Source: Odiellus spinosus (lineage: Eukaryota > Arthropoda > Arachnida > Opiliones > Phalangiidae). Taken from it: 64,000 nt of DNA. This document shows, piece by piece, positions 14,256 through 61,800 of this stretch. The DNA lies in the NCBI GenBank assembly GCA_963920705.1, contig OY987231.1:6689424-6753423 (forward strand), written 5' to 3'. Below the pieces are notes generated by a model. That model had not been told where the DNA came from and did no database searches. It saw only the letters and a list, made by a program, of their open reading frames with translations. Position 1 is the first letter of the stretch. The number at the start of each line of letters is the position of its first letter. A program made the position numbers and the translations under genes.

Positions 14256-14650
14256 AAAGCTACGGTCACACTAGCATTTCTTAATCGGTTTAAAACGGTA
14301 AAATCAAACCTATGTTCATATCACCAGGAATCATTTTAAGCGCCAAGTGTTCACGCATTAGCTACGTTCACACTAGCGTATACCAATCGATTTGAAACGG
14401 TAAAATCAAACCGATATTCGAATCGCCAGGAACCGTATCGTTTTAAGCGTCACGTGTTCACTCATTATCTTCATAAATCGATTTAAATAGCTTCATCTAT
14501 CGGTTGTTGAAACCGTATCGGTATGAAACTGGTTCCCGAAGTAGTTTCGAGAAATCGAATCAAATCGATTCGAGAAAAGACGGTTTGCCGTTCACACGAC
14601 TCCAGCGAAAGTTTTAAAACGGTTTAAATTGATACCAAGGCAGTAAGTAA
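14256..14650. repeat. Family A MITE, one partial and one full copy
   Basis: A truncated copy (CTACGGTCACACTAGCATTT to about 14360) is followed directly by a full copy starting CTACGTTCACACTAGCG and ending with GATACCAAGGCAGTAAG. Both run in the same sense. Confidence 0.65.
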
Positions 14651-14830: not shown

Positions 14831-14982
14831 TAAGCCGCGTTCACACTAGAGACTTTGAAACCGTTTTTATTGGAAAGGTAATATTATACATTTTGGTGTG
14901 ATCAAAAAACCCAATTAACACTTCGAAGAGTCGATTTGAATATTCGAAACGGTTTCAAAGTATCCAGTGTGAACGTAGATTA
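14831..14982. repeat. Family B MITE (fold-back), copy 1
   Basis: The ends GCGTTCACACTAGAGACTTTG and CAAAGTATCCAGTGTGAACG are near-complementary, continuing inward as AAACCGTTTT / AAACGGTTTC. Other copies lie at 20107-20293, 23339-23520, 23947-24131, 27785-27900 (partial) and 53020-53098 (partial). The outer words are shared with family A, so the two may be related. Confidence 0.65.
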
Positions 14983-14984
14983 TA

Positions 14985-21469: not shown

Positions 21470-21502
<33 letters not shown>

Positions 21503-38319: not shown

Positions 38320-39752
38320 CCGATACACATATCACGGTTTAACCGATACACGTATCTAGGTTTAACCGATACACGTATCGAGGTTTAACCGATACACGTA
38401 TCGAGGTTTAACCGATACACGTATCGAGGTTTAACCGATACACGTATCGAGGTTTAACCGATACACGTATCGAGGTTTAACCGATACACGTATCGAGGTT
38501 TAACCGATACACGTATCGAGGTTTAACCGATACACGTATCGAGGTTTAACCGATACACGTATCGAGGTTTAACCGATACACGTATCGAGGTTTAACCGAT
38601 ACACGTATCGAGGTTTAACCGATACACGTATCGAGGTTTAACCGATACACGTATCGAGGTTTAACCGATACACGTATCGAGGTTTAACCGATACACGTAT
38701 CGAGGTTTAACCGATACACGTATCGAGGTTTAACCGATACACGTATCGAGGTTTAACCGATACACGTATCGAGGTTTAACCGATACACGTATCGAGGTTT
38801 AACCGATACACGTATCGAGGTTTAACCGATACACGTATCGAGGTTTAACCGATACACGTATCGAGGTTTAACCGATACACGTATCGAGGTTTAACCGATA
38901 CACGTATCGAGGTTTAACCGATACACGTATCGAGGTTTAACCGATACACGTATCGAGGTTTAACCGATACACGTATCGAGGTTTAACCGATACACGTATC
39001 GAGGTTTAACCGATACACGTATCGAGGTTTAACCGATACACGTATCGAGGTTTAACCGATACACGTATCGAGGTTTAACCGATACACGTATCGAGGTTTA
39101 ACCGATACACGTATCGAGGTTTAACCGATACACGTATCGAGGTTTAACCGATACACGTATCGAGGTTTAACCGATACACGTATCGAGGTTTAACCGATAC
39201 ACGTATCGAGGTTTAACCGATACACGTATCGAGGTTTAACCGATACACGTATCGAGGTTTAACCGATACACGTATCGAGGTTTAACCGATACACGTATCG
39301 AGGTTTAACCGATACACGTATCGAGGTTTAACCGATACACGTATCGAGGTTTAACCGATACACGTATCGAGGTTTAACCGATACACGTATCGAGGTTTAA
39401 CCGATACACGTATCGAGGTTTAACCGATACACGTATCGAGGTTTAACCGATACACGTATCGAGGTTTAACCGATACACGTATCGAGGTTTAACCGATACA
39501 CGTATCGAGGTTTAACCGATACACGTATCGAGGTTTAACCGATACACGTATCGAGGTTTAACCGATACACGTATCGAGGTTTAACCGATACACGTATCGA
39601 GGTTTAACCGATACACGTATCGAGGTTTAACCGATACACGTATCGAGGTTTAACCGATACACGTATCGAGGTTTAACCGATACACGTATCGAGGTTTAAC
39701 CGATACACGTATCGAGGTTTAACCGATACACGTATCGAGGTTTAACCGATAC
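38320..39752. repeat. 23-bp minisatellite with palindromic core, about 62 units
   Basis: Each unit is AGGTTTAACC followed by GATACACGTATCG. The second part holds the inverted pair CGATAC / GTATCG separated by two bases, so each unit can form a tiny hairpin. Only the first two units differ. The array ends about 80 bp beyond the stop codon of the first NACHT gene, so it lies in or next to that gene's 3' region. Confidence 0.95.
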
Positions 39753-39830: not shown

Positions 39831-42800
39831 TTATAAGCTCTGATGAGAAAGTTTCTCCATATCTGGATACGAGGTTTCCGGGTGAAAAAATCTATAATCT
39901 GAAACCAAATATCAGATCATTAATGTTAAGGCTCGTGATAAATTTATAGGGGGAGTCGAAGATTTCGGACTCTTCAATTTCGCTTTTAAAATACAACGAA
40001 TCCCCCATGGGCCCTGTAAATACGTGACATGGCGTGTTTGCCGTCGAATTCCCGACAACTAGTGGGATTTGTCACGAAAAATGAAACTAAATAACCATAC
40101 GAAATAGACTTCATGCGTTTATTTTGACCCCCCCTCAAAGGGGGTAGGTAATCATGCCGTCACTGCGCATGAGGTCATCATCCCCCTTTATAGTTCTGAT
40201 TCAGTGGGTTGCCTACCCGTTTGAAAGAGATCAAAATAAACGCAAGAGGTCTATCACGAACAGAGAAGATGGATCTACAGAATCCTTCTATACGAATACA
40301 AGTCATCCCAGGGTTTGCTAACCTAGGTTTCACCAATTTCGTACATGGACATATATACTTACAAAACTCTTTTTCCAATACAATGTTGTCCTTTTCCTTC
40401 GCTAGAAACCAATCTTCTTCATTGAAATCCAGTCCTACAAAATGGGCCGATACACTCCACGCAACTTGACCGCTAAGGCTAACGTTCAACAGGATATTAT
40501 GCGATTCCTTCCCTCGAAGTGGGAAATGGCTGAAAACTGCCACGATACTAATTTGTTTCGCGACCTGTTCATTTTCCAACATCGCCGACAAAAGATCTCG
40601 ACCAATTATATGTTCCGCAAAAATCAGTCTCGATCCGAGATAACCTCGACTTTCTTTCTTATTGTACAAAAACATTTCGAGATGTCCCAGTTGCTTCATT
40701 TGGTGGCTGAATTCTTCTAGGGAATTACGATAAACTTCATCATCGCTGAAGTAAAATCTTCCGTTTTTCAATATATCTTCAATCGTGATATCATTAACGG
40801 GATTCCAAGACGTAATAAACTGGACCCTTACAACATATCGGCCGCTAGTGAAAAGTTTCACGTCATTGGGACTTCTAACATGTAGCTCAAAACTGTGGGG
40901 TCTTAACTTCTGCATTACGAATGCAATTTTATCGTCCGTTGTATGTTGGCTATCGAATCCATTTTGCAAATAGCTGGTGGTAACGTAATCTATCACAAGT
41001 TTGTGAATGGGTTCGACCCAGTTGGCTCGCTCCCACGATTTGCTCAAAGATTTAATGGGTTGAAGTATCCCGCATTCCAGAATGAATTTCCTTTCGAGCT
41101 CGTTTTCGAACAGCGTTTCGATGTCCGTCCTCGGGCAAGATAACTTCATTTTCTGCAGATTGCCGAGATAAAACTCTCCCAATTTGTGAAACAAATTCAT
41201 CATAGTAATTTGGTCCATGGATGAGGACAATCGTTCGCGACATTTTGTTCCCATTAATAACAAAACGTCTTTCATGACGGACGATGGGCTTTTAAGTTCT
41301 CGGACGTCCTTGTTCAGAAAAAGGTAGCAGATTAGGTGAAGCATGAACGGCGTTATTTTCGTGTTAAATCGCAAAATATACTTGTTCAGACAAGACATTA
41401 TTTCAATTTGCCTGATGGTGTTGAAAGGAAACATGTTTTTCACGATTTTATCGGTGGACTCACGCGTCAGGCCTGCTATTCGATAATGGCGCTGGAATAA
41501 TTGTAAAAATTCGGTTTTTTCCGTCGTTCGAGACGTGACGATTATGGTAGAGTTCCTAAATACCATCTGGGACGCGTCCGTTTTGAGTTTAAGAGAATTT
41601 ACGAAACGTAATCGTTTGATTTCGCTCAACTCGTCAAATCCGTCGAGAATAATGAGAATTCTTCTGGCGTTCTCTTGAAGCGCCCGAAGCGTAAAATCCG
41701 CTTCGACGTTCGAAGAAGCGTTAACTTGACAAAACATTGCCAGTCCGTTTTCGAGGGAATCTTTTTCCAGTAAATCCCTGAGCCTGAACATTATTAACAA
41801 ATGAAAACCTTGAGCCAAGTTATCGATTTTTCCAACACTCCAGTCGTAAGCGATTTTTAGACACAGGGTTGTCTTTCCCATGCCAGCTTCTCCTCTAACG
41901 AGAATCCTCTTCGGAGGAACTTGGTGTCCCTTCTCCGGTAATAAGAAGTCGTTCAACTGGACCGACTCCATTTTCAACAGTTTTCCGCTTCGGCTCAACT
42001 CTTCCACTTCCATTTGGACGTAAAAATCTTCCGGCTCCAAATCGATATCGATGAGGTTGCCCATGGGTTTAGCCCAAGCCACTTCCGAAGAGTACAATGT
42101 CCGCAAACTATCCCTGACATCCTCGATATGTTTATTAAGTTCTGCGGAATAAAGGATTTTTATTATTACGTGGTAAAAAAGACGTTCAATTAAACCGTAT
42201 ACTCGAAAAACGCCATTCGGGCGCCTTTTCGTTCGGTTTAAATCTCAAGATTTGAATAAGGCATAACCATCTTCAAGTTGAAACCAAAATTAAGTAGGAT
42301 GAAGTAGGTAAGCCCCCAAAAAAGGAAAGGTCCAAAAAACTTTTCAAATTGCCTTTTGAATCGAAATTAACATACATACGATTACTTAACTTTCTCGGTG
42401 CAATTTAACCAAGGTAACAAAAAAATTATATTTATAGGTACAAATTATAGGATTTTATAGGACCACCTGGGAATTATAGGTTTTTATAGTACCACTTAGG
42501 AATTATAGGTTTTTTATAGGACCACCTGAGAATAATAGGTTTTTTATGGAACCACGTGGGAATTATAGGTTTTTATAAGACCACCTGGGAATTATAGATT
42601 TTTGTAGGACCACGTGGGAATTATAGGTTTTTATAAGACCACCTGGGAATTATAGGTTTTTATAAGACCACCTGGGAATTATAGGTTTTTATAGGACCAC
42701 CTGGGAATTATAGGTTTTTATAAGACCACCTGGGAATTATAGGTTTTTATAGGACCACCTGGGAATTATAGGTTTTTATTGGTATTATAGGTACTCTGGG

Positions 42801-44168
42801 AGCCTTTCAGGCCTAATCCACCAGTAAAAAAATGTACAAACAAATATTAAACTAGAAATAAATTGAAAATTTTAATGCATGGCGATCCTGAACTCCCCAT
42901 ATAAGGACCATCGTTGATAGTCTTGATATGGGGAGCTCAGGATCTCTATGAATCCAGCTAAGCTTATTTAATAAGTTTTAATTTTATTTCTAGTTAAATA
43001 TTTGTTTAATATTTTTTTTTAACTGGTGGAATAGTGCTATTTAAAGTTAAACAATAGGTTTCATTCTCCCTTTAAGGAAGGTTTAATGAAATTGTAATGT
43101 AATTAAAAATTTTTAATTAAATTTTGATTAAATTTTATGGAAGTTGTAATGAAATTTTAAGGAAATTTCGAAGATTCCCCAATTAATTTTTACACCTTGT
43201 AGGAAACACCTGACCTCCAATTAACGGGGTGACCACGCCATTGTGAAAGGTGCTTAATATTGTCTAAAAGTTTAAAACCTATAAGGTGGTTCGGGTTAGC
43301 GCATAATTTTTTAATTTTATACTCCTAATGCTGCGTTTCTATTATTTTCTTTCCTAAAAGACGCGCGTTTAAACATAAAACATATTTCGACAGTGATGGA
43401 GGAGTATAATAGAAAAACATTTTAGCCGCTTTCATACTAGGCCTTGGAATCGATTTACACCGTTTCAAAACGTTCCGCTCTAGCCGTGTGAACAGGAAAA
43501 CGTCTTTACTCGAATCGATTTGATTCGATTTCTCGAAACTGCTTTGGGAACCAGTTTCGTACCGATTCGGTTTCAACAACCGATAAATGAAGCTACGATA
43601 AATCGATTTATAAAGATAATGCGTGAACACGTGACGTATAAAACGATTCCTGGCGATTTGAATATCGGTTTCATTTTACCGTTTCAAATCGATTAACAAA
43701 TGCTAGTGTTACCGTAGCTTTAGTGTACACTCACCTGCCTCGATCTTTTTGGCCGGATCTGCCGGGTGATGATGGTGTATGAAATTTACTTCCGCTTCCA
43801 CTACGCGGTTATTCTACAATCACGGATATAATCTTAAAGACTGGCTATATAGTCAAATATATAAATCCAACATACCTCGCCTCCTATAATGTTTATTTGT
43901 GTTTCAACGTCATTATTTAAGATACCTCTGAAAGAGTTTAAGTGGAATTCGCATTCCTTGATTTTACACGAAAAACGACATTAACAAAAATTCATATTTC
44001 AAACGGAGAATTTTGAATTCGATGGTTTTGGAATCTTACTTTCAATTCTTTCGGCGCGAAGGATTGCGCTAAATTGACGCAATCGTTTCCACTCGAATCT
44101 TCCTTTTTTGACAAGGACTCATCGTCGCCAGAGTCATCTCGTTCTCGGTCCTCTTTAATTGAAGCCAT
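39831..44168 (-). CDS. NACHT-domain NTPase, NLR-like, copy A
   Basis: Five exons, 711 codons: 44040-44168, 43876-43956, 43735-43813, 40363-42141, 39831-39898. All are GT-AG and in phase, and all are shared with copy B. Residues 1-43 are acidic and polar. Residues 60-85 hold TQINIIGGENNRVVEAEV, then FIHHHHPADP. The NACHT NTPase follows: P-loop GEAGMGKTT at about 180-188, Walker B ILIILDGFDEL at about 257-268 and TSRTT at about 299, then a helical region. The C-terminal part has no LRR, WD or ankyrin repeats that I can see. The family acts as nucleotide-switched oligomerising sensors, often in innate immunity or cell death; the role here is inferred. A longer read-through tail to 40178 exists, but the strong donor TTTT|GTAAGTATAT and a conserved last exon (RFFHPETSYPDMEKL) favour splicing. 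Confidence 0.88.
42440..42790. repeat. 29-bp tandem array in intron 3 of NACHT copy A, about 12 units
   Basis: The unit reads GACCACCTGGGAATTATAGG followed by TTTTTATAA or TTTTTATAG, with small variations. Similar wording (GGAATTATAGGTTTTTAT, GGATATTATAGAAA) occurs singly at 845-920 and 1650-1680. Copy B has no such array. Confidence 0.85.
42806..43071. repeat. Family C fold-back MITE, left end missing
   Basis: The arms GGCCTAATCCACCAGTAAAA and ACTGGTGGAATAGTGCTATT are inverted. The right end TTCATTCTCCCT is followed by TTAA. The left terminus is replaced by the 29-bp array. It is absent from copy B's intron, so it was inserted after the duplication. Confidence 0.65.
43425..43722. repeat. 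Family A MITE in intron 3 of NACHT copy A
   Basis: A reversed copy running from CTTTCATACTAGGCCTTGGA to TGCTAGTGTTACCGTAGCTT. It is absent from the matching intron of copy B, so it was inserted after the duplication. The 101-codon minus-strand frame over it is incidental. Confidence 0.75.
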
Positions 44169-44597
44169 TTTCTAAAACTAAACCTTTATAATTTCCCCAA
44201 GATGTATTCTGTAATCCAACGGGATTTAAGTTTTAGTTTCTTACTCTGTTGGACGAGTTTCATTATCCCATGGCGGCTAATCAAAAGTAATCTGACCGCT
44301 TAAAACGCTCGGAATCAAATGATTCTTCTTTCGTTCTCGGAACTTTTTGTCGTCTCCTTAAATCCGAATGTTCATAAACATAGCTTCTTCTTTTCTGCGA
44401 ATACAGTTTTTTAAAACCCATTCTCGACGCGGGCCGTGCAATGTCACGAAACAGATTATTTTAAATTTTGGTAGATTAGATTAATTTTATCTCTACATAT
44501 TTCAACGACTTATCTTTCTATTTTCTACCTCAGGGTTATTAACAATGGACACCTTAATAGCCACACATCTCATGTTAGTTTAACCTAACCTAACCTT

Positions 44598-45611
44598 AAT
44601 GAGAAACGTTTTAATTTTTCATGAGAAACGTTTTAATTTTTCATGAGAAACGTTTTAATTTTTCATGAGAAACGTTTTAATTTTTCATGAGAAACGTTTT
44701 AATTTTTCACGAGAAACGTTTTAATTTTTCACGAGAAACGTTTTAATTTTTCACGAGAAACGTTTTAATTTTTCACGAGAAACGTTTTAATTTTTCACGA
44801 GAAACGTTTTAATTGTTCATGAGAAACGTTTTAATTGTTCATGAGAAACGTTTTAATTGTTCATGAGAAACGTTTTAATTGTTCATGAGAAACGTTTTCA
44901 TTTTTCATGAGAAACGTTTTCATTTTTCATGAGAAACGTTTTCATTTTTCATGAGAAACGTTTTCATTTTTCATGAGAAACGTTTTCATTTTTCATGAGA
45001 AACGTTTTCATTTTTCATGAGAAACGTTTTCATTTTTCATGAGAAACGTTTTCATTTTTCATGAGAAACGTTTTTATTTTTCATGAGAAACGTTTTCATT
45101 TTTCATGAGAAACGTTTTCATTTTTCATGAGAAACGTTTTCATTTTTCATGAGAAACGTTTTCATTTTTCATCAGAAACGTTTTCATTTTTCATCAGAAA
45201 CGTTTTCATTTTTCATCAGAAACGTTTTCATTTTTCATCAGAAACGTTTTCATTTTTCATCAGAAACGTTTTCATTTTTCATCAGAAACGTTTTCATTTT
45301 TCATCAGAAACGTTTTCATTTTTCATCAGAAACGTTTTCATTTTTCATCAGAAACGTTTTCATTTTTCATCAGAAACGTTTTCATTTTTCATCAGAAACG
45401 TTTTCATTTTTCATCAGAAACGTTTTCATTTTTCATCAGAAACGTTTTCATTTTTCATCAGAAACGTTTTCATTTTTCATCAGAAACGTTTTCATTTTTC
45501 ATCAGAAACGTTTTCATTTTTCATCAGAAACGTTTTCATTTTTCATCAGAAACGTTTTCATTTTTCATCAGAAACGTTTTCATTTTTCATCAGAAACGTT
45601 TTCATTTTTCC
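44598..45611. repeat. 22-bp minisatellite with ordered variant blocks, about 46 units
   Basis: The core GAGAAACGTTTT is joined to (A/C)ATTTTTCAT. Variants occur in runs: first TTAATTTTTCATGAG, then TTAATTTTTCACGAG (about 44706-44800), TTAATTGTTCATGAG (about 44805-44885), TTCATTTTTCATGAG (to about 45170) and TTCATTTTTCATCAG (to the end). Since 66 bp is three units, open frames of 191-196 codons run through it; these are artefacts. It starts about 430 bp upstream of NACHT copy A. Confidence 0.95.
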
Positions 45612-47034
45612 ATACGCGACGACTTATTTTTGGTCATTTCTGGGGACATCTGACTTCAGGTTTCAGACTTCAGACAGCACGTTACAAAGTAATAGCCTAC
45701 ACCTTCGGTGTGGCTAAAAAGTAATAACGAAAGTCGGCCATAAGCGCGTCTTTTAACGGCCTAAACAATGCGGGAAGATAAGAAAATTAAATATTCGTAT
45801 AAAACTCGAATATTTTATTTGAAATTCCTGCCCTAGAACCATAGCCTACGTTATGTATACCAAGAATCATAATACTGAACAAACCTGCATAAAATAAGCT
45901 AGTCAGTAAGAGAACGTAACTAAACAATAAATTACTCTTTATCTTTATCACTTTGCGGCGTTAATACGAAGCAATAACGTAATATAATAACAGGCTTGTT
46001 GACTGCTATGGATGAAGAATAACCAGACGCCCACGTGGTTTTGTTAGTTCCTACCTTTGCTCGCACTCTTTCACATTGTTGTCTTTTAGGTATTAACTTG
46101 TCTATTGTTCCTAGTCCTAGGTGTTATCCGCTTTTAGCGCTTACAATTTAATCGCATGTACGGAAGGTTTTTCCCTTATCTTCTGATCAGACGTAGACTG
46201 TTTATATGTCCTTGACTAAAATTAATAATACTCTAAAATATCTGGTATAAGTATGCCATCTGTGGACGAAATTTTGTAATGTATTTAATCGCGATTCCAA
46301 TTTAACCATTTTTTGATCATCGTTTATATCGTTTCGAATAATTTTTCGTCATTGTACGAATTCCATAAAAAAACTATATTATTCAAAATTGAAAATGAAT
46401 GCTGTGAATTTCGTGGTATTGAGTGTAGATGGCACCGATAAAGGCTAAAACACTATCTAATTAGCCACCCCTTTTGAAATAGTTTTATCTAGCGTAAGTT
46501 GAGATACTGGGTCAAAGACCCAGAATGATTTTAGATGGCTGAATGGACAGGATAATAATTTTTCTTTTAAAACTTGGAAGATAATTGTCCAAAAGTAAAA
46601 TAATAATTAATTTTAGTTATAATCTGATATATATTAAAAAGGGTGGAATTAAAACGTAATTGGAGCTGATCAAATCGACTATTCAAGACGGGAATCGTCG
46701 AAGGTCGATCGCGAACTTTTCGAAGTCGATCGCGAAGTGTATTGGGTTTGACTGATTTGAGACAAAAAATTTATATAAAGGCTTTAGATGTAGGAAAACC
46801 GTTTTGAGTGCATTTTCCCAAGCCTTGGCGGAGACCATTTTGATATATTCTTCTCCCGAGTCTTTAGTGATAGAAATACCTCGCAAATTATCAAACAATT
46901 CGGAGCAAGTTGACTATAGTCTACAGCTTAGCGTTAAAGATATCATCGTTAGTAGGAATTAATAAAAGTTTCTTAAATCTCCCGTAGTTATTGCTCGACA
47001 TTTGCTGAGTCGGTTCGCTCTCAAAAGGTCGCAT
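45612..47034. other. Intergenic, including the duplicated NACHT upstream segment
   Basis: Bases 46005-46085 are a part copy of the MITE at 18739-18908 (GTGGTTTTGTTAGTTCCTAC). Bases 46260-46510 match 57190-57440 of duplication block B. No gene is recognised; short minus-strand frames near 46.7 kb lack support. Confidence 0.5.
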
Positions 47035-47335
47035 CTCGAAAACAGCGCTTATCCAAAACAGCGCTTATCCAAAACAGCGCTTATCCAAAACAACGCTTAT
47101 CCAAAACAACGCTTTCCCAAAATAACGCTTTCTCTAAAACAGCGCTTTCCCAAAATAGCGCTTTCTCTAAAACAGCGCTTTCCCAAAATAGCGCTTTCTC
47201 TAAAACAGCGCTTTCCCAAAATAGCGCTTTCTCTAAAACAGCGCTTTCCCAAAATAGCGCTTTCTCTAAAACAGCGCTTTCCCAAAATAGCGCTTTCTCT
47301 AAAACAGCGCTTTCTAGCTCTAAAAGAGCGTTTCT
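47035..47335. repeat. 33-bp tandem array made of two half units
   Basis: Units alternate AAAACAGCGCTTTCCC and AAAATAGCGCTTTCTCT. The left edge has a shorter AAAACAGCGCTTATCC form. All half units contain AGCGCT, a 6-base palindrome. As 33 is a multiple of three, open frames on both strands are artefacts. Confidence 0.9.
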
Positions 47336-47449
47336 CAAAAAATCGCCGCTTCATAAAAATTTAAGGCACTATACTAGTAACCAAACTTAACCTAAAAGCT
47401 TTATATACATATTAAAGAGCACATTCCCAAAAGGGCGCTTCCCCATGCA

Positions 47450-47600
47450 TAAGAGGATTGGGGTCGATTTGATCGAATCCCAAATGATCGAACGCTGTCT
47501 CAAATGATCGAAGGTCATATGATCGAAATTATTTGGTTTTAAAGGTAGTCTCAATTGATCGAATATCATTTGATCGAAGTGTCATTTGTACGAATGCTTC
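47450..47600. repeat. ATTTGATCGAA-rich repeat, left piece
   Basis: Words AAATGATCGAA, CATTTGATCGAAGTG and GATTTGATCGAATCCC recur. A matching GATCGAAT-rich piece lies beyond the Kolobok element at 52385-52620. Confidence 0.6.
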
Positions 47601-47676
47601 CTGATCGAAATCAATTTTAGGAGGAAACTTCTAAGACTTGAAGCCCTGCCCGTTTACGCTTCCCTTCCATTGGACC

Positions 47677-47735
47677 TAAACTAACCTAACCTAACCTAAC
47701 CTAACCTAACCTAACCCAACGTAACCCAACCAAAC
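47677..47735. repeat. Interstitial arthropod telomere-type repeat (CCTAA)n
   Basis: About six perfect CCTAA (TTAGG on the other strand) units are followed by degenerate ones (CCCAACGTAACCCAACC). TTAGG is the usual telomere unit of arthropods. The run is internal, between a minisatellite and a transposon, so it is an interstitial tract. A tiny three-unit run occurs at 44580-44595. Confidence 0.8.
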
Positions 47736-48257
47736 ATAGCCAAGCTTAGGCTTAAGTATTTTTTTGTACAAAAAAACCTACTTAAAGGGTTACCGACAGT
47801 TAAGTATTCTAATTTTATATTATTGTCTAATGATACTATTTGTATGGTAGAACTAACGCTGAAGCCGAATTTATCGACGGCTTAAATTAAATATAAGTAT
47901 TTAATTTATAAATTAACAATTAAAACTCTCCCTAGATTGCTTTTAGCCCCGCCCCCTTGATTTTTTTCCTTCAGGGGCAGAGGGTCTTTCCCTCAATGTT
48001 TTTATCAAGTACGTCACGGGAAAAGAAGGGCGGTGCTATTTCCCTCTGCCGGAGAAGAAAAATCAGATTAGGCCCAAAAGCAGCTGTTTACTTTTTCGTA
48101 GAGGTCGAGGTAAAGGTTTCACTACTCCTGCTAGTTTTTGCTTTAAGTTTGTTCCTAATTTTTATATAATCGTAGAATAATAAATAAAGTATAGTAGAAT
48201 AATCGAGTATAATTATAAATATAAATCAGAAGTTTCGTAGTTCGAAAAATCTAAATC

Positions 48258-51057
48258 ATGAATAAGCCTTGCTATGCCTACAAATGCATAGCTCCTGGAT
48301 GTGAGAAAGATAATTTCTGCCTTTCTAAGGAGAAGGGCTTATCGTTTCACCGTTTTCCAAAAGATTGTACTTTACGAACAAAATGGGTTGCTGCAATGGG
48401 TATACCGTCTGACCAAATTAAAACAAGCAGTAGAATATGTTCAAATCATTTTACGAATGAATGTTACGAGCATCAATTAGATGCTTTAGTAAATATTGAT
48501 CCAATATACCACACAAGAAAACTTTTAAAAAGGGATGCAGTCCCAAGGGCTAAGAGAAAGCTCGTGGACCTAACGAGCTCGAGAAATTCCGTAGAAATTT
48601 CCGTTAATGACTCTACAATTAATGATATTAATTCTGATGCTATGGAGCTTGAAAATATTCCAAGCCCTGCTAAATCATCGCTTAGTCGGAAAAAAGCAAG
48701 ATCTTTGGTAATCGATATCCACTTAATCTTTGAATGAATTTGCCATTAATATTATTATGTATTTTAGGACTCGTACTCGCCATATAGAACCGTGCAAACC
48801 GAATCTGTTGGAATACAGTCAGTTTTGCATCCACCAAGTACTTCCAGAGGTATTCAAGCATACATTGCGACACCCTCAAAAAATAATTCAACTCAAACTA
48901 CAAAAAGACAATCAAACAAAAGTAAGAAAAAATAAAAAATAAAATTTGTAAAATAATTAATCCACAGTTATCGTTACACATTCAAGGTTGCCAGGCTTTT
49001 CCTAAGGTCCATGATAAAGGCACCCAAACGATTGATAAATATGATGCGCTTGTGAATGAATTTATAGTATCTCGTACGGAAGATGTGTATGATTATGAAG
49101 AAATAAACGATGGTATTGATGGTGGCGAGGAAATTAGAGATCCGTTGGATACAAGTTTTAGTCCTTCATCGCTAGGAGAAGATGATGTTTTTGAGTATAG
49201 AAATATTAAATTAAATTCTAAAATGTTGGTAGTTTTTAAAAAATATTCTTTTCAAGGTCAAGAAAGGATCATGGCGCACCTGACGATCGCAAGTACATTG
49301 TCTTTGAAACGGCCTTGCTACAACTTTTTGTTTTTTGTACACAATGCTTATCTAAATGTACAGCCATCACGTCAGTTTCTGGCACGATGATTACGGTACA
49401 AACTAGTTGTCCCAACAACCACTCCAATATATGGCGTAGCCAACCATTACTTGGTCGTAAACCTGCAGGCAACATAATAGTTGCGTCTGCAATGTTATTT
49501 GCGGGACTAAATCCAGAGAAAACGTTACGCATGTTTCGTTTTGCAAACATTGCAACATTCGACTTGCGAACATTTTACCGTATGCAGAAGGCTTATCTTT
49601 TCCGCGCTATAGATAATGTAAGAACTGACACGAGTATGAATTTAGAGTTATAATAAATATACTAAAATTTGTGATATTTTACGCTTAGGTTTGGAAAAAT
49701 AATCAAGAAACATTACTTAGATCGTTAAAAGGCCAAGATTTAATTTTGGGTGCAGATGGTCGATGCGACAGCCCAGGATTTTGTGCGAAATATGGCAGTT
49801 ATTGCTTTATGGAAAATAAAATCAAAAAGGTTATCCACCTAGTTTTGCTACAAGTATGTATATAATTAATTACACAAATAACAGTAATAATATAATAATA
49901 TAATTACAAATAATTGCAGAGTAATCAAGTCAAAAATAGTGTAGCGATGGAATTAGAGGGTTGTAAACGTGGATTGGAATTTCTCAAAAATCAAGGATTG
50001 AATATCGGTTACATGGTGACTGACAGACACAAGCAAATCAGATGCTATTTGCGAACCCACCATAAGGACATAGTACACCTTTTTGACGTTTGGCATTTGG
50101 TAAAATGTAAGTATAGAGTTTAATGGGAAAATGAAATGCTTTGGCTAAGTACTTTGAATTAATTTGCCTTAAAGCTGTGAAAAGCAAAATAGCGGCTGCG
50201 TGCGGAAAAAAGAAAAGCATGGAGATTTTACTCTCTTGGAGTAAAAGTATCCAAAACCATCTGTATTGGATAGCTAATTCTAGCGGAGGAGTGAGCGAAC
50301 TTATGCAAGCTAAATGGTGCTCTATTTTGCGGCATGTTGTAAACCTGCACACTGGTCACGAACCACCATTTGAGGCATGCGAACATAAAGAGCTGGTTGG
50401 AGAGAGGCCCAGGAAGTGGATGAAGAAGACAACAGAGGCATACGTCACTCTATCAAAAATTATCAATAATCTTACTAAAGATATTGGGCAATTGGCGTGG
50501 GTATGCCAAACTTCCTCAGTGGAAGCTTTTAATGCGGTTGTTATCCAATTTGCACCAAAACATACGCATTATTCATTTCTTGGCATGAAAGCTCGGTACG
50601 TGAAAATTAACCTAAAAAACTTAATAAATACAATAACAAAACCATTGTTTTAGACTTACATTAGCGGCTCTTCATTATAATGAAAATTCTACAAAAATGC
50701 AAGCTACAACCAAAAATGGCAAACGCCGGTGGAATATATTTTTCCCCAAATTTAAGTCTGGTGAATATTCCGTTCGACCTATCATGATGGCATCTACTTA
50801 CGGTACATAATATATATTAAATTGATTTATTAGATAGAAACACAATAATGGTTTAAAATTATATTTCAGAATACGTTGAAGACTTAATGGAAATGGTCAC
50901 CATATTCGCAAATGCGGAAACCTATGGAAAAGGGAACGAGCTATCGATTATAGAATTGGGAGAAACACCAGAGCCTTTAGCTTCTAAATATGACAAGCCA
51001 AACAAAGATGAAGCTGTAGCATCTTATGAGAAGTCTAAAAGGTTTCATGAATCATAA
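48258..51057 (+). CDS. Kolobok-type transposase with N-terminal THAP domain
   Basis: A nine-exon model, 759 codons: 48258-48707, 48768-48921, 48987-49228, 49294-49617, 49689-49853, 49920-50106, 50175-50595, 50654-50802, 50870-51057. Residues 1-95 are a THAP zinc finger (C10-x4-C15 ... SRICSNHF, with FHRFP and KWVAAM), which binds the element's own DNA. The catalytic core shows ADGRCDSPGFCAKYGSY, MVTDRHKQIRCYL, HLFDVWHLVK and SSVEAFNAV, which supply likely acidic residues and the D-x-W-H motif of this family. Two splice choices are weaker: acceptor at 48986 (CATTCAAG) and the 65-nt intron 49229-49293; without them the frame breaks. The fit of all other junctions argues that the gene is intact. 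Confidence 0.85.
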
Positions 51058-51297
51058 CCACTAAATCAGCTAAGAATGGCAATAAAATTTTATAAAACAA
51101 CGAAATCAAATTTATTTGTCTCCGTTGTTTTCTGGCAACTAGCCTACCTCGGTATGCGGCCCCTATTTTCAGAACCATACAGCTCTGAAACTACAACAAT
51201 TAAAAAAAAAAAATTGCCCATAACACGATAGATTAATTCAAAATGATTTATTAAAATAAAAGCGTGTACAATTCAAATTACACTTTCTTTGCCACTC

Positions 51298-52027
51298 CTA
51301 ATGTCTGCATCGTCTTCTGGCAAGTATGGGTCGAAAACCACAGTACTCGTCCGATGGGAACGCGGCTCTAATTTTAATTACAACACAACTGGGAATTGGC
51401 AATCTGCTCCCAGGTAAAAACCAATAAATCCACCTGATAAATCTACGATAAGCCAGGTATCTATAGGTTCTGTAAATATATTAGAATAGTTAACATAAGC
51501 TTCTGATTTAAGGTGTAGGTTCAAAAATTTTGCACTTACTCGTGTATCAAACCTTGCAAAGGCTCGTTAACTTGTCTCCCACCATTGGGATTAACGAATT
51601 CTATATAACTTAGTCGTAACTGGGGTTGATGGGTACACGTACCGTGAAATTCTTCATGCTGCGTTATACATGTTCCATTGAGAATTTCACCATCGACTTG
51701 TTCATATTCCCGGCAGCAAACGCTCTCCGCGTTGGTGTCCATCCTCTGGCAAAAACCGCAAGTACACCAGTCGGTGTTTTCTAGTCTATTAAACTCGACT
51801 TGTGTAGCTGGTGCCTCGTTTTCTACCTCATTTTCCTCACTTTCAGTCTCAGACGCCAGTGGCTCAAATTGGTAGGGCTGTATACCATTACCATGATGAG
51901 GCTGGTGGCCAAGGCCTAATTCATTGCCCATAGCTTCGGCATCATCCGAGCTTTCTAACTCGCTAAATTCATTTTCCGACTCTTCCGACAAGTCCGAATA
52001 GTAAATGGATGATTCAGAATCTGACAT
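51298..52027 (-). CDS. P2X7 C-terminal-domain-like zinc protein, second gene of the Kolobok-like element
   Basis: Two exons, 51540-52027 and 51298-51469, joined in phase (CACGA|GTAAGT and TTTACAG|A) give 219 codons. Residues 1-75 are very acidic and serine-rich (SDSESSIYYSDLSEESENEF). Then comes a cysteine cluster, NTDWCTCGFCQRM and ESVCCREYEQV, and further CITQ/CTHQ positions. Exon 2 supplies YRYLAYRRFIRWIYW, PIPSCVVIKIRAAFPS and YCGF, the end of the same fold. This matches the cytosolic zinc-binding domain of vertebrate P2X7 receptors (P2RX7_C type). No channel region is present. It lies inside the transposon and converges on the transposase, so it is an accessory element gene; its role is unknown. 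Confidence 0.85.
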
Positions 52028-52384
52028 TTCACTTAAAAACTATTAATAGAGTGTTTAAATTGTTTTAAAGTTTTAGTAAAATCGCGATAAAATGTCGCCA
52101 AAGAATTTCAGAAATGGAAAACCACGTGACATTAGTCGGCCAATCACACGAGAGATAAAAAATAACCAATCTTGTTTGCCTTACTCATATACGTCATTTT
52201 TAACCACTCCCTCGCAGTAATATTCAAAAAGGCGAAAACTTCATACTTAATTAAAACTATTAATTTCTTAATTAATAAAATACAGTTTTAAAAAAAAAGT
52301 AAGAGACCATATTTGGTTAATCCCAAGGTTGGATTTTCAGCAGAAAAACCAGACTTTTCATCTTAGCTGTCGGTAACCCTTTAA

Positions 52385-52620
52385 TTAGTTCGATCATTTT
52401 AGGTTCGATCTAATGAGAATAATCCCTAAAGGATTTAGTTCTACTACAATAGTATTTTAAATACTACTACTTCGATCAATTGTAATTCGATCCAATGGAC
52501 ATCGATCAAATGCCACAAAAGTTAAAACGAGAATAAAATAAATTTGATCGAATTCGATTCGATCATTTGAAACAAAATTTGATCGAATTCGATCAGACAT
52601 TTTTCGATCTAATGGAAATA
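52385..52620. repeat. GATCGAAT-rich repeat, right piece
   Basis: Words such as TTCGATCAATTGTAATTCGA, GACATCGATCAAATG and AAATTTGATCGAATTCGATC continue the repeat seen at 47450-47600. The transposon, telomere run and other DNA now separate them. A long A run follows at about 52665-52683. Confidence 0.6.
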
Positions 52621-53062
52621 AACCGCATAGGAGTGGTTTTCAAACAAAAAGTGCTAATTTTCCAAAAAAAAAAAAAAAAAAACTTTTTTAGGGTAAAGCG
52701 TTTTTTTGGGAAGTGCTCTAATGAGGGTCACCCGGGTTTTTTAGTCGATATTTAGAACTATTATATTAAATAATCTCTTGTTTTGGAGTGGTCGGGAAAG
52801 AATATTTTAATATACAATTATGTCAAAGTGGTCACAAAAAAATATAATTATTGTAGTTTTTTTTTTCTTTTTTTTTTTCGATCTCTATGTAGGAAAGGGC
52901 ACGCGTAATTGTTTTTGTAAATCGAGGAAAATACAAATATCATTGAAAAAAGTCTGGCGAGCTCTTATTCAATTTATTCAAGATATTAGTTGTATTTCTC
53001 GATCAAGAATCTTCACCGATGACCTCAAAATTGTATGATTTGACCTTTCGTAAACGCATTGT
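52621..53062. other. Intergenic stretch with a partial family B MITE
   Basis: Homopolymer A and T runs lie at about 52665 and 52855-52880. Bases 53020-53098 are one end of a family B MITE (ACCTTTCGTAAACGC, CAACGGTTTCCAAGTCTCTAG), which runs into the last exon of NACHT copy B. Confidence 0.55.
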
Positions 53063-56000
53063 TCACAACGGTTTCCAAGTCTCTAGTCTGTCTAAGCTAT
53101 GGTCAAGTTCATCAACATTTGTATACGGGGTTTCCGGACGAATCATTTTATAGCCTGAAACCGGATATCAAACCATTAATAATGTTAAGGCTCCTGATAA
53201 ATTTCTAGGAATAGGTTAGTAAACCTTTCTATTCGTGGAGTCCAAGATTTAGAAATAGCTATAGTCGGATTTTTCAATTTGCCTATTGACATACAAGGCG
53301 CGCTGCGCGCGGGATACGGTAAAACGAAAGACTCCTCTTTGGGCCTGTCTTGGACTCCTCGGAGGGGGAGTAAGTGTAGAAGGAGGTTAAAAAGGTATCT
53401 AGGAATCACCAGCGGTGAAAAAGAAATGTTGCAAATATGCTACAGTTTACGAATTTGCGCATGAGCGAAAGACGAAAATAAGTAACTATACGCAATTACG
53501 AACAGCGAAAATAGATCTGCTGAATGCGGAAAAACTCCTACGAGTCATCTCAGGATTTGCTAACCTACGGCTCCCCAATTTTGTACATGAACATATACTT
53601 ACAACACTCTTGTTCCAATACAATATTGTCCTTTTCCTTCGTTGCAAACCAATCTTCGGCATCGAAGTCGAGTCCTGTAAAATTGACCGATACACTCCAC
53701 GCTACGTGACCGCTTATGCTAACATTAAATCGGACATGAAGCGATTCTTTGCCCAAAAGTGGGAAATGGCTGAAAACCACCCCGATACTAATTTGATTCC
53801 CGACGTGTTCATTTTCCAAGATCGCCATCAAAAGATCTCGACCAATTATATGTTCCGCAAAAATCAGGCTCGATCCGGGGTAACCTGGATTTTCTTTCTT
53901 ATTGTACATAAACATTTCAAGATGTCCCAATCGCTTCAGTTGTTGGTTGAATTCTTCTAGGGACTTACTATAAACTTCATCATCGCTGAAGTAAAATCTT
54001 CCGTTTTTCAAAATATCTTCAGTCGTGATATCATTAACGGGATTCCAAGTCGTCAAAAACTGGACCCCAACAGCCAACCGACCGCTCGTTAAGAGTTTCA
54101 CGTCATTGGGACTTCTAACATGTAGCTCAAAACTGTGGGGTCTTAGCTTTTGTAATACGAATGCTATCTTATCGTCCGTTGTATGTTGGCTATCGAATCC
54201 ATTTTGCAGATAGCTGGTGGTAACGTAATCTATCACAAGTTTGTGAATGGGTTCGACATAGTTGGCTCGCTCCCACGATTTGCTTAAAGATTTAATGGGT
54301 TGAAGTATCCCGCATTCCAGAATGAATTTCCTTTCGAGCTCGTTTTCGAACAGCGTTTCGATGTCCGTCCTCGGGCAAGATAACTTCATTTTCTGCAGAT
54401 TGCCGAGATAAAACTCTCCCAATTTGTGAAACAAATTCATCATAGTAATTTGGTCCATGGATGAGGACAATCGTTCGCGACATTTTGTTCCCATTAATAT
54501 CAAAACGTCTTTCATGACGGACGAAGGGCTTTTAAGTTCTCGGACATCCTTGTTCAGAAAAAGGTAGCAGATTAGGTGAAGCATGAACGGCGTTATTTTC
54601 GTGCTAAATCGCAAAATATACTTGTTCAGACAAGACATTATTTCAATTTGCCTGATGGTGTTGAAAGGAAACATGTTTTTCACGATTTTATCAGTGGACT
54701 CACGCGTCAGGCCAACTATTCGATAATGGCGCTGAAATAATTGTAAAAATTCTGTTTTTTCCGTCGTTCGAGACGTGACGATTATGGTAGAGTTCCTAAA
54801 TACCATCTGGGACGCGTCCGTTTTGAGTTTAAGAGAATTTACGAAACGTAATCGTTTGATTTCGCTCAACTCGTCAAATCCGTCGAGAATAATGAGAATT
54901 CTTCTGGCGTTCTCTTGAAGCGCTCGAAGCGTAAAATCCTCGTCAACGTTCGAAGAAGCGTTAACTTGACAAAACATTGCCAGTCCCTTTTCGACGGAAT
55001 CTTTTTCCAGTAAATCCCTGAGCCTGAACATTATTAACAAATGAAAACCTTGAGCCAAGTTATCGATTTTTCCAACGCTCCAGTCGTAAGCGATTTTTAG
55101 ACACAGGGTTGTCTTTCCCATGCCAGCTTCTCCTCTGACGAGAATCCTCTTCGGAGGAACTTGGTGTCCCTTCTCCGGTAATAAGAAGTCATTCAACTGG
55201 ACAGACTCCATTTTCAACAATTTTCCGCTTCGGCTCAACTCTTCCATTTCCATTTGGACGTAAAAATCTTCCGGCTCCAATTCGATATCGATGAGGTTGC
55301 CCATGGGTTTAACCCAAGCGACTTCCGACGAGTACAATGTCTGCAAACTATCCCTGACATCCTCGATATGTTTATTCAGTTCTGCGGAAAAAATGTCAAA
55401 CTTTATTGAAAGGGAACATTTTAGTAGTAACTATAGACGATGTCGGCGTTAACTTTTTTTCGACAGTATCTGTGAGGGGTCTCTAGCAGATTTAACGCTG
55501 GTATCGTGGCAGCCGAGGGTTCGGACACTTGTCATTATTTTGTACTGGATTTTGGGATTTCGGAAAGATTTTGAGTTTTTAAAACTGTTTTGGGGAGAGA
55601 TTTCGGGATTTCAATGTTAATTTCACATTCGTTTTCGGCCGATTTAGCAAGTGTCCGACCTTTCGGTGGCAGACCGATAGGGTAAACTCAAACGTTCCCT
55701 TTTACTCTACGAGTCCCCGAATTTACACATATTATGTCATTGATTGGGCGAGGTATTATAAAACGGAGCTGAAATTTTGGCACGAGGACGACCAATTAGT
55801 TTAACACCCTCCAACAGACGGGGTGGCCACGCCCACTCACAGCGAAGTCTATTCACGACCGGAACGCGTTTAGGTGACGCTGCACCGCTGACGCTTTTGT
55901 TGTCTGCTAAGGGATTGATCCCCGTTTTAAGCCAATCGATCATAGATTTCGATCGCTATTAATTAGTTCCGTCATTTTGCATCGAAAGTAAGTTAGTGTA

Positions 56001-56566
56001 AAAATTTAAAACCGAAAAGGGGGTTTGGGCTAGCCCATAGCTGATCTATTTTACACTTGTAATTCTATTGTTTCCTAAAATACGGGCAAAACACATTTCG
56101 ACTGTGATGGAAGAGTATATTTGAAAAACCCAGAGGCTTAAACTCACCCGCCTGGATTCTTTGGGCCGTATCTTCCGGGTGATGATGGTGTATGATATTT
56201 ACTTCCGTTTCCACTACGCTGTTATACTACAATCACGGAAATAATGACTTAAGGTTTCGATATACAGTATATCATTTCAACAAACCTCGCCTCCTATAAT
56301 GCTTATTTGTTTTTTAACATCTTTATTTAAGATTCCGCTAAACGAGCTTACGTGGAACTCGCATTCCTTGAATTTACACGAAAATCAATATTAACAAAAA
56401 TTCCTTTTTCAAACGGAGAATTTTAAATTTAATGGTTTTGGAATCTTACTTTCAATTCTTTCGTCTTGAACGATTGCTCTAAATCGACGCAATCGTTTCC
56501 ACTCGAATCTTCCGTTTTTACCAAGATATTTTTGTCTTCAATCTGATCTTCTTTACTTGAAGCCAT
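53063..56566 (-). CDS. NACHT-domain NTPase, NLR-like, copy B
   Basis: Five exons, 715 codons: 56450-56566, 56286-56366, 56148-56226, 53603-55381, 53063-53154. Splice sites and phases match copy A; exon 4 is 1779 nt in both. The protein keeps the acidic start, the KKQISIIGGEYNSVVETEV segment, the HHHHP motif, P-loop GEAGMGKTT, Walker B ILIILDGFDEL and TSRTT. Exon 4 is nearly identical to copy A, while exons 1-3 differ more, which fits faster change in the N-terminal signalling part. The last exon (KMIRPETPYTNVDELDHSL) is homologous to copy A but runs eight codons further into family B MITE sequence before its stop. Intron 2 uses a weaker GTTTGT donor. Innate sensing is inferred from the family, not shown. 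Confidence 0.87.
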
Positions 56567-57440
56567 TTTCTAAAACTAAAGCTATCATAATTTTTCTCTC
56601 TAATCCAACGCGAATTAAGTTTTAGTTTCTTACTCTATTGGACGAATTTCATTAGCCGATCGCGTCTAATCAAAAATAATCTTCCGACTGCTCATTGTTC
56701 ATTGGTTTTAGGAGGTTTTCGGAGTCTTAACCCCCAAATGTTCGTAAACATATGACGTTTATTAATACTTTCGTTTCGTACATTACAATTAGATTATTAG
56801 TACGATTTCCAAGAATAATTTTATCACTACTACGCGTATTGGAACGGCATACCATTTTATCTATTACCTCGGTTAAAACCTCTACTGGCGCCTACAGAAT
56901 CGCCTCTTACAGCTCCAGACTCCAGTAACTGTTATAAAATATGAAACTATTTTCGTTTAAGGTCAATGGCATCCAGAAATAATTAAATTAATTAAACTGC
57001 AAGCGAGTACTCAGTTAAGAACTTGTTGGGTCAGTGATATTCAAATATTATATATGTACAGTACTTTACATTAATAATAAAGTTGTTTATTAAAATCAAC
57101 AAAATATGTAGAGATGAAAATGTTCTTGGCTGGCTATTCGTTGATGGGTTGTAAAAAATATCCGTTTTCGTAAATATCTTCGGAGAATAAGCCCTCTATG
57201 AACGCAATATTGAAATATATTTAATTATGATTACAATAATTACTATTTCATCATAGTATATAGCTTCGAATATTTTTCTTAGTTGTACAAATTCCATAAA
57301 AAAATATTTTTCAACGAATGTTGTGGAATTCGTGATATAATGAGTTACTATAGATGGCACCAAATCTAGGCTAAAATGTTATTTCTTTCATCTAAGCCAC
57401 TATTTCGAAATAGTTCTATCTCGCGTAAGTTGAGGCACGT
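53085..57440. repeat. Segmental duplication, block B
   Basis: The partner of block A, in the same orientation, starting about 13.3 kb to the right of it. Introns align between the blocks except for elements present only in A, so B is nearer the ancestral length. A fold-back-like repeat at about 55510-55670 (GGTTCGGACACTTG / CAAGTGTCCGACC) sits in B's intron 3 and is absent from A. Confidence 0.85.
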
Positions 57441-58804: not shown

Positions 58805-61800
58805 TCACGTGCCTTCGCCGCCGCCATCCTCGTCGAGAGCTTGTTGAATCAAGGCGATTAGTTGTTCTAAGAGTTCCGTATTGCTAACGCTATTGCCGAA
58901 ACCGCCCGTGAATCCATTGATGGTCGAAACGGGATAAGCTACTGTCTGCACAGGCATGACGTAATAGACAACGGGTTGAGCCATTTGGTAACCACCGTAG
59001 TAGCCCCCGTATCCACCGCCATAACCTGTTATTTATTTTTATAAAAATAATTTAGGTTAAGTAATACATTTTTAAACTAGAAACGAGTGGCCAGTCACTC
59101 AGAGTAATCGGTGTACAGGCTGTACCTTTGATTGTACTAAAGCAATTACGCAAAATATTTCAAATCCTTGCCTTTGACAGTGCTAAAATGATTACGCGTA
59201 ATCCGTAATCGGTGTACAGGGAATCCGAGTGTGATTAGCCCCTTCGACTAGAAATTCGAAATTTTCGACTCGTATCCGATTCGAAACCATTTCTTAAGGA
59301 CACGACAAGTTAAGTTTTCCGGGTTGAGTTTTCGAGTTTTCCAGGACTCGAAGACTCGACGAGTCCAGTTTTCCAGGACTCGAAGACTCGACGAGTCCAG
59401 TTTTCCAGGACTCGAAGACTCGACGAGTCCAGTTTTCCAGGACTCGAAGACTCGACGAGTCCAGTTTTCCAGGACTCGAAGACTCGACGAGTCCAGTTTT
59501 CCAGGACTCGAAGACTCGACGAGTCCAGTTTTCCAGGACTCGAAGACTCGACGAGTCCAGTTTTCCAGGACTCGAAGACTCGACGAGTCCAGTTTTCCAG
59601 GACTCGAAGACTCGACGAGTCCAGTTTTCCAGGACTCGAAGACTCGACGAGTCCAGTTTTCCAGGACTCGAAGACTCGACGAGTCCAGTTTTCCAGGACT
59701 CGAAGACTCGACGAGTCCAGTTTTCCAGGACTCGAAGACTCGACGAGTCCAGTTTTCCAGGACTCGAAGACTCGACGAGTCCAGTTTTCCAGGACTCGAA
59801 GACTCGACGAGTCCAGTTTTCCAGGACTCGAAGACTCGACGAGTCCAGTTTTCCAGGACTCGAAGACTCGACGAGTCCAGTTTTCCAGGACTCGAAGACT
59901 CGACGAGTCCAGTTTTCCAGGACTCGAAGACTCGACGAGTCCAGTTTTCCAGGACTCGAAGACTCGACGAGTCCAGTTTTCCAGGACTCGAAGACTCGAC
60001 GAGTCCAGTTTTCCAGGACTCGAAGACTCGACGAGTCCAGTTTTCCAGGACTCGAAGACTCGACGCGTCCAGTTTTCCAGGACTCGAAGACTCGACGCGT
60101 CCAGTTTTCCAGGACTCGAAGACTCGACGCGTCCAGTTTTCCAGGACTCGAAGACTCGACGAGTCCAGTTTTCCAGGACTCGAAGACTCGACGAGTCCAG
60201 TTTTCCAGGACTCGAAGACTCGACGAGTCCAGTTTTCCAGGACTCGAAGACTCGACGAGTCCAGTTTTCCAGGACTCGAAGACTCGACGAGTCCAGTTTT
60301 CCAGGACTCGAAGACTCGACGAGTCCAGTTTTCCAGGACTCGAAGACTCGACGAGTCCAGTTTTCCAGGACTCGAAGACTCGACGAGTCCAGTTTTCCAG
60401 GACTCGAAGACTCGACGAGTCCAGTTTTCCAGGACTCGAAGACTCGACGAGTCCAGTTTTCCAGGACTCGAAGACTCGACGAGTCCAGTTTTCCAGGACT
60501 CGAAGACTCGACGCGTCCAGTTTTCCAGGACTCGAAGACTCGACGAGTCCAGTTTTCCAGGACTCGAAGACTCGACGAGTCCAGTTTTCCAGGACTCGAA
60601 GACTCGACGAGTCCAGTTTTCCAGGACTCGAAGACTCGACGAGTCCAGTTTTCCAGGACTCGAAGACTCGACGAGTCCAGTTTTCCAGGACTCGAAGACT
60701 CGACGAGTCCAGTTTTCCAGGACTCGAAGACTCGACTAGTCCAGTTTTCCAGGACTCGAAGACTCGACGAGTCCAGTTTTCCAGGACTCGAAGACTCGAC
60801 GAGTCCAGTTTTCCAGGACTCGAAGACTCGACGAGTCCAGTTTTCCAGGACTCGAAGACTCGACGAGTCCAGTTTTCCAGGACTCGAAGACTCGACGAGT
60901 CCAGTTTTCCAGGACTCGAAGACTCGACGAGTCCAGTTTTCCAGGACTCGAAGACTCGACGAGTCCAGTTTTCCAGGACTCGAAGACTCGACGAGTCCAG
61001 TTTTCCAGGACTCGAAGACTCGACGAGTCCAGTTTTCCAGGACTCGAAGACTCGACGAGTCCAGTTTTCCAGGACTCGAAGACTCGACGAGTCCAGTTTT
61101 CCAGGACTCGAAGACTCGACGAGTCCAGTTTTCCAGGACTCGAAGACTCGACGCGTCCAGTTTTCCAGGACTCGAAGACTCGACGAGTCCAGTTTTCCAG
61201 GACTCGAAGACTCGACGAGTCCAGTTTTCCAGGACTCGAAGACTCGACGAGTCCAGTTTTCCAGGACTCGAAGACTCGACGAGTCCAGTTTTCCAGGACT
61301 CGAAGACTCGACGAGTCCAGTTTTCCAGGACTCGAAGACTCGACGAGTCCAGTTTTCCAGGACTCGAAGACTCGACGAGTCCAGTTTTCCAGGACTCGAA
61401 GACTCGACGAGTCCAGTTTTCCAGGACTCGAAGACTCGACGAGTCCAGTTTTCCAGGACTCGAAGACTCGACGAGTCCAGTTTTCCAGGACTCGAAGACT
61501 CGACGAGTCCAGTTTTCCAGGACTCGAAGACTCGACGAGTCCAGTTTTCCAGGACTCGAAGACTCGACGAGTCCAGTTTTCCAGGACTCGAAGACTCGAC
61601 GAGTCCAGTTTTCCAGGACTCGAAGACTCGACGAGTCCAGTTTTCCAGGACTCGAAGACTCGACGAGTCCAGTTTTCCAGGACTCGAAGACTCGACGAGT
61701 CCAGTTTTCCAGGACTCGAGACTACTCGAAACCCAAAAACAGGAATAGTATATTAGCCATTTTCACTAAATCAGACTAGACAAATAAAACCATTAACCCC

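What the first reader, a model, noticed from the sequence alone, without database searches (positions are those of the whole stretch)
39831..56566. A tandem pair of complete NACHT-domain NLR-like genes
Two five-exon genes with identical splice phases, both with intact P-loop (GEAGMGKTT), Walker B (ILIILDGFDEL) and TSRTT motifs. NACHT NLR-like genes are patchily distributed in arthropods and seldom described. The pair has no recognisable LRR, WD or ankyrin sensor, so what they sense and how they signal is open. Exon 4 is nearly unchanged while exons 1-3 differ more, an uneven pattern typical of evolving immune receptors.
Basis: partly seen in the sequence, partly recalled or inferred. Interest (0 to 1): 0.85.

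Follow-up and report, generated by a model that had tools for sequence, protein, structure and literature searches.

The report
Twin LRR-less NLR-like genes, probable arthropod
Two neighbouring, intact copies of an immune-receptor-like gene with a NACHT switch domain lie in what looks like an arthropod genome; the NACHT identity is real, but both ends of the proteins match no known domain, and the near-identity of their middles looks like recent copying between the twins.

Summary
Both genes lie on the minus strand with five exons, GT-AG introns and matching phases, encode 711 and 715 aa, and have no internal stop. Pfam NACHT is the only family above its cut-off (E 7.1e-21 and 1.8e-20; next best 22 bits); the best solved relative is NLRP3. 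No LRR, WD, ankyrin, TPR or death-fold family was listed.

The evolutionary reading is only partly right. Exon 4 is not uniformly conserved: a break near residue 500 separates a 97.4% identical NACHT tract from an 86.7% identical remainder. Synonymous divergence dips too: dS 0.28 in exons 1-3, 0.08 in the tract, 0.25 in the remainder. That fits gene conversion between older paralogues. The ends are less constrained (dN/dS 0.65 and 0.47, against 0.17); positive selection is not shown.

Most likely these are LRR-less NLR-type STAND switches with an unrecognised N-terminal signalling part and C-terminal sensor; the mechanism is inferred. An LRR-less NLR-like gene is already reported in shrimp (PMC12370184, passages), so this is a new member of a known kind. 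AlphaFold models were unusable (pLDDT 31-32). Organism and expression are unknown.

The parts
39831..44168 (-). Gene A, start codon to stop codon, 711 aa; exons 44168-44040, 43956-43876, 43813-43735, 42141-40363, 39898-39831
   Evidence: NACHT E 7.1e-21
53063..56566 (-). Gene B, start codon to stop codon, 715 aa; exons 56566-56450, 56366-56286, 56226-56148, 55381-53603, 53154-53063
   Evidence: NACHT E 1.8e-20
40363..42141 (-). Exon 4 of A: pre-NACHT segment, NACHT and most of the C-terminal region; open for 592 codons
53603..55381 (-). Exon 4 of B: same, open for 592 codons, no indel against A
41868..41893 (-). Walker A (P-loop) of A
55108..55133 (-). Walker A (P-loop) of B
40928..42139 (-). 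Low-divergence tract of A (codons 1-404 of exon 4, residues 97-500), probably homogenised with B
54168..55379 (-). Low-divergence tract of B, partner of the tract in A
40364..40927 (-). Diverged C-terminal part of exon 4 of A (codons 405-592), no known domain
53604..54167 (-). Diverged C-terminal part of exon 4 of B, no known domain
43735..44168 (-). Exons 1-3 of A: N-terminal tail, no known domain
56148..56566 (-). Exons 1-3 of B: N-terminal tail, no known domain

Best explanation
The pair are paralogous, protein-coding NLR-type STAND switches of an animal, probably an arthropod. Shown: a NACHT domain with intact Walker A, Walker B and TSR motifs in two intact genes of identical structure, with NLRP3 the closest solved relative, and purifying selection on the NACHT tract. 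Inferred: ADP-bound monomers are held closed; a ligand or guarded host protein acting on the C-terminal region (residues about 500 to the end, no known repeat) releases the switch; ATP-driven oligomerisation then gathers the short N-terminal tails (residues 1-95) to recruit a partner. Inferred from divergence: the switch core was recently homogenised by gene conversion while the two ends kept older differences, so the copies may differ in input and output but share one switch.
For: NACHT is the only Pfam family above cut-off in either protein. Of 37 PDB sequences listed at E up to 1, 32 are named as NACHT or NLR proteins, 1 is BIRC1 (NAIP, recalled to be an NLR), 2 are listed only as uncharacterised (5irl, 5irm; NOD2 by recall) and the 2 weakest (5il7, 6he4) are unrelated; the best is NLRP3, 7.8e-8. 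Both exon 4 frames are open through 592 codons without an indel between them. dN/dS in the tract 0.17, bootstrap 0.08-0.35. Conversion: synonymous differences 19.0 of 254.0 sites in the tract, 12.5 of 52.8 in exons 1-3 and 24.8 of 115.5 in the remainder of exon 4 (Fisher p 0.0019 and 0.0002; the two flanks p 0.84); change-point gain 36.1 lnL units against at most 9.8 in 500 permutations.
Against: No transcripts, no outgroup, no third copy. No known signalling domain at the N-terminus and no known sensor at the C-terminus. The winged-helix assignment rests on a recalled motif resemblance near residue 475. Immunity is inferred from family membership only. dN in exons 1-3 (0.184) is close to the divergence of introns 1+2 (0.158), so the N-terminal tail is little constrained, which sits poorly with an essential signalling part. 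Tract and remainder were split at a change-point found in the same data, so those p-values are optimistic; four-fold sites alone give 10 of 140 against 9 of 47, p 0.026.
Confidence: 0.66

Rival explanations
1. An ordinary NLR whose death-fold and LRR-like parts have diverged beyond profile detection; nothing about its architecture is new.
For: Short single-sequence queries against profiles miss remote relatives, and no deep alignment could be made; both AlphaFold models failed, so the folds are unknown.
Against: Strict LRR pattern 0 in each C-terminus, loose pattern 2 in each against shuffle means 1.9 and 2.0; no death-fold family at E up to 10 in residues 1-116 of A and 1-112 of B; residues 1-95 leave little room for a death fold after an acidic first stretch (7 basic, 12 acidic among the first 43 in A, 6 and 12 in B).
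Confidence: 0.3
2. The N-terminal tail signals by an amyloid (RHIM-like) motif coded by exons 2-3, as in fungal NLRs and the fly IMD pathway.
For: The sequence QI(N/S)IIGGE(N/Y)N(R/S)VV in both copies resembles RHIM-type motifs in composition; predicted aggregation-prone stretches overlap it in A and B (scale from memory); amyloid tails on NLRs are established in fungi (PMC7889193, passages).
Against: The RHIM core and its insect variant are absent from both proteins. The best ungapped match of the N-terminal 100 residues to human RHIM cores is beaten or equalled by 87 of 300 shuffles in A; in B by 13 of 300, but there the best match is a different place (residue 90). The aggregation-prone stretches are 3 of 27 in A and 4 of 27 in B that start before residue 130, and the strongest lie elsewhere. 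No second copy of the motif in six frames, a weak test since the motif spans an exon junction.
Confidence: 0.1
3. A NACHT protein with a housekeeping or non-immune role, such as scaffold or RNP factor, rather than a receptor.
For: NACHT is found outside immunity (the telomerase subunit TLP1, PMC8195603 passages); no immune partner domain is present.
Against: The closest solved relatives are NLRs; tandem duplication with diverging ends is less usual for a conserved housekeeping gene (general knowledge).
Confidence: 0.2
4. The low divergence of the NACHT tract comes from selection alone, on protein and on synonymous sites, without gene conversion.
For: dN/dS is lowest there (0.17), and the tract contains the catalytic motifs.
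Against: dS falls more than threefold relative to both flanks, and the flanks agree with each other.
Confidence: 0.2

Closest known systems
Vertebrate NLRs (NLRP3, NLRC4, NAIP)
   Same: NACHT with Walker A, Walker B and TSR motif; local similarity to NLRP3 from just before the P-loop to Walker B, E 7.8e-8
   Different: No PYD, CARD or BIR found at the N-terminus and no LRR at the C-terminus; only 711-715 aa
Shrimp LRR-less NLR-like LvNLRPL2
   Same: Arthropod NLR-like gene stated to lack the C-terminal LRR domain (PMC12370184, passages)
Shrimp LvNLRC
   Different: 1485 aa with a C-terminal LRR domain, which the window genes lack
NACHT protein on a plasmid of Candidatus Megaera polyxenophila (WP_282487231.1)
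   Same: Alignable from the pre-NACHT segment through NACHT; tblastn E 5e-6, 24-25% identity
   Different: A much longer bacterial protein; in its first 1000 aa no further similarity above chance

Membership tests
NACHT clade of STAND NTPases | Pfam NACHT profile above its curated cut-off and above other P-loop families | tested here: met
   75.2 and 73.9 bits against cut-off 26.7; next best 22.3 and 21.6, below its own cut-off of 24.8
NACHT clade of STAND NTPases | Walker A, Walker B and TSR motif intact | tested here: met
   GEAGMGKTT, ILIILDGFDEL and TSRTT in both proteins
NACHT clade of STAND NTPases | Winged-helix domain after NACHT | tested here: inconclusive
   Only a recalled motif resemblance (IHKLVIDYV, residue 475 in A); AlphaFold model unusable
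Bona fide animal NLR (NACHT plus LRR) | C-terminal leucine-rich repeats | tested here: not met
   No Pfam family at E up to 10 in the C-terminal 179 (A) or 188 (B) residues; strict LRR pattern 0, loose pattern at shuffle level
Bona fide animal NLR (NACHT plus LRR) | N-terminal death fold (CARD, PYD, DD, DED) or BIR | tested here: not met
   None listed at E up to 10 in residues 1-116 of A and 1-112 of B; a divergent fold is not excluded
RHIM or cryptic RHIM amyloid-signalling protein | Core tetrapeptide [IV]Q[IVL]G or the looser [IV][QHN][IVL]G | tested here: not met
   0 matches in A and in B
Animal immune receptor | Induction by, or protection against, infection | not testable with these tools

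The most novel reading that the evidence does not exclude
An LRR-less arthropod NLR subfamily with a new N-terminal signalling module (exons 1-3) and a new non-repeat C-terminal sensor fold, in which gene conversion keeps one common NACHT switch across paralogues while the input and output ends diverge.
Probability: 0.28. Interest if true: 0.65.

Novelty: new member of a known kind. Interest (0 to 1): 0.42.

Why it matters
Drosophila and C. [quoted passage not shown] The two copies form a natural test: same switch, different ends, so exchanging ends between them in a laboratory insect cell line would show which end sets input and which sets output.

Tried and rejected
Relatives. Viral contigs with the exon 4 protein of A (no pattern match) and with a three-sequence profile (160 stretches, none confirmed), genome contigs twice (12 and 104 stretches, none confirmed) and phages at E up to 0.01 gave none. 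Plasmids at E up to 0.01 gave 2 records with bacterial NACHT proteins, of which I fetched 1. No eukaryote collection was available, so distribution in arthropods could not be tested.

Structure. AlphaFold2 on exon 4 (two rows, mean pLDDT 31.1) and on the C-terminal 188 residues of exon 4 (two rows, 31.8). Both are meaningless; no fold search was made.

Weak hits rejected as below cut-off: BRCT (E 0.007) and BORCS8 (0.011) on the N-terminus of B and HATPase_c_2 (0.16) on that of A; NPHP3_N and AAA-type models on the NACHT region; NCBIfam PRK13695 (0.0029) and TIGR02928 (0.068) on the P-loop; PADLOC mad8 (0.0058). PDB search with residues 44-116 of A gave nothing better than E 0.79, and with the last 179 residues nothing better than 0.95.

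RHIM idea: tested and its core not met. Upstream GAAACTAAAA in both copies lies in flanks that are 80% alike over the 150 bases before the start codon; STAT-like matches also occur but at different places; given no weight.

Papers. Seen as passages: PMC8195603, PMC12370184, PMC9531809, PMC7889193, PMC7308585, PMC5606592. The rest were seen as listings with the start of the abstract.

Full report
What was checked. The two genes were rebuilt from the sequence. Gene A: exons 44168-44040, 43956-43876, 43813-43735, 42141-40363, 39898-39831, 711 aa. Gene B: exons 56566-56450, 56366-56286, 56226-56148, 55381-53603, 53154-53063, 715 aa. Both are on the minus strand. All 8 introns begin GT and end AG, and the cumulative phases are 0, 0, 1, 1 in both. 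Neither spliced frame has an internal stop. In exons 1-4 the only length difference is 12 bases in exon 1, in frame; exon 5 is 68 bases in A and 92 in B. A tblastn of both proteins against the window at E up to 1 finds, besides the exons of A and B, only one 28-residue match at 62064-62144 with E 0.69, so there is no sign of a third copy here.

What the proteins are. Pfam NACHT reaches 75.2 and 73.9 bits against a cut-off of 26.7; every other listed family is below its own cut-off, the next at 22.3 and 21.6 bits. In the PDB the best matches are NLRP3 chains (E 7.8e-8). Of 37 sequences at E up to 1, 32 are named as NACHT or NLR proteins, 1 is BIRC1, 2 are listed as uncharacterised protein and 2, the weakest, are unrelated. 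A two-row profile gives 14 sequences at E up to 0.001, 13 named NLRP3 and one a fusion whose name is cut off in the listing. The alignments printed run from just before the P-loop to Walker B. A bacterial NACHT protein on a Megaera plasmid aligns over the pre-NACHT and NACHT part at 24-25% identity; no direction of transfer can be drawn from it.

What they lack. Residues 1-116 of A and 1-112 of B: no Pfam family above cut-off at E up to 10. The last 179 residues of A and 188 of B: no Pfam family listed; strict LRR pattern 0 in each C-terminus, loose pattern 2 in each against shuffle means of 1.9 and 2.0. So no sensor repeat and no signalling domain is recognised. Two AlphaFold jobs with two-row alignments gave pLDDT 31.1 and 31.8 and were discarded; HMMER filters and shallow queries mean that divergent known folds are not excluded.

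How the copies diverged. Exon identities are 0.79, 0.85, 0.86, 0.94 and 0.71; introns 1 and 2 are 0.89 and 0.81; introns 3 and 4 are 0.49 and 0.57, close to unalignable apart from their ends. Intron 3 of A carries a minisatellite and dispersed repeats that recur elsewhere in the window. Within exon 4 a change-point at base 1211 of the 1776 compared (residue about 500) separates 2.6% from 13.3% difference; the gain of 36.1 lnL units was reached in 0 of 500 permutations, maximum 9.8. dS is 0.284 for exons 1-3, 0.079 for residues 97-500 and 0.252 for residues 501-688; the tract differs from each flank (p 0.0019 and 0.0002) and the flanks do not differ (p 0.84). For exon 4 as a whole dS is 0.128. 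Four-fold sites alone agree more weakly (10 of 140 against 9 of 47, p 0.026). The split was chosen from the same data, so these p-values are optimistic. dN/dS is 0.65 (0.29-1.58), 0.17 (0.08-0.35) and 0.47 (0.27-0.81). The simplest reading is an older tandem duplication followed by gene conversion of the NACHT tract. The ends are less constrained than the switch; positive selection is not shown. Against an important role of the N-terminal tail, dN in exons 1-3 (0.184) is close to the divergence of introns 1+2 (0.158).

The organism. Not named, and no whole genome is held. A TTAGG-type array at 47674-47735, weak nose-resistant-to-fluoxetine and acyltransferase matches and a THAP frame fit an arthropod, but this is an inference.

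How it probably works. Shown: an intact nucleotide switch domain of the NLR type under purifying selection. Inferred: closed ADP state, activation through the C-terminal part, oligomerisation, recruitment of a partner by the N-terminal tails. A RHIM-type amyloid version of the last step was tested on sequence and its core was not met.

Comparison with what is known. An LRR-less NLR-like gene is reported from shrimp, and NLR or NLR-like sequences from crustaceans and ants are listed in a figure legend of the same paper (PMC12370184, passages); [quoted passage not shown] I file the pair under NACHT STAND proteins and call it NLR-like, not a bona fide NLR, because the LRR test was not met. It is a new member of a known kind, with two ends whose nature is open.

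Noticed in passing
48255-50653 (+): THAP-domain reading frame (E 8.6e-16) followed by three further frames in the same direction without a Pfam match, between the two NACHT genes; looks like a P-element-like transposon (that name is from recall).
   Followed up: partly
51539-52039 (-): Reading frame matching the P2X7 receptor intracellular domain (P2RX7_C, E 7.5e-9, above cut-off), with no other family in that frame.
   Followed up: no
47674-47735: Interstitial TTAGG-type telomere-like array (period 5, about 12 copies, 85% match; an exact 15-base pattern gives 4 overlapping matches, none in 100 shuffles).
   Followed up: partly
30058-31496, 38320-39752, 44599-45610, 59335-61723: Long, very homogeneous minisatellites of 22-32 bp units (96-99% match, 46-75 copies), two of them flanking gene A; the 32-bp one is open in several frames and gives long spurious ORFs.
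   Followed up: no
18285-26571 (-): Frames matching acyltransferase 3 (E 0.00027) and the nose-resistant-to-fluoxetine N-terminal domain (E 0.015), both below Pfam cut-off; possibly exons of NRF-6-like genes.
   Followed up: no
43419-43727 with 1098-1599, 14250-14641, 14979-15261, 22155-22437, 22589-22863: Dispersed repeat of about 280 bp inside intron 3 of gene A that recurs in these other places of the window at 75-91% identity.
   Followed up: partly
46236-46503 and 57172-57434: A further 73% similar stretch upstream of the two genes, so the duplicated unit probably reached beyond exon 1; in A the 22-bp minisatellite lies in between.
   Followed up: no
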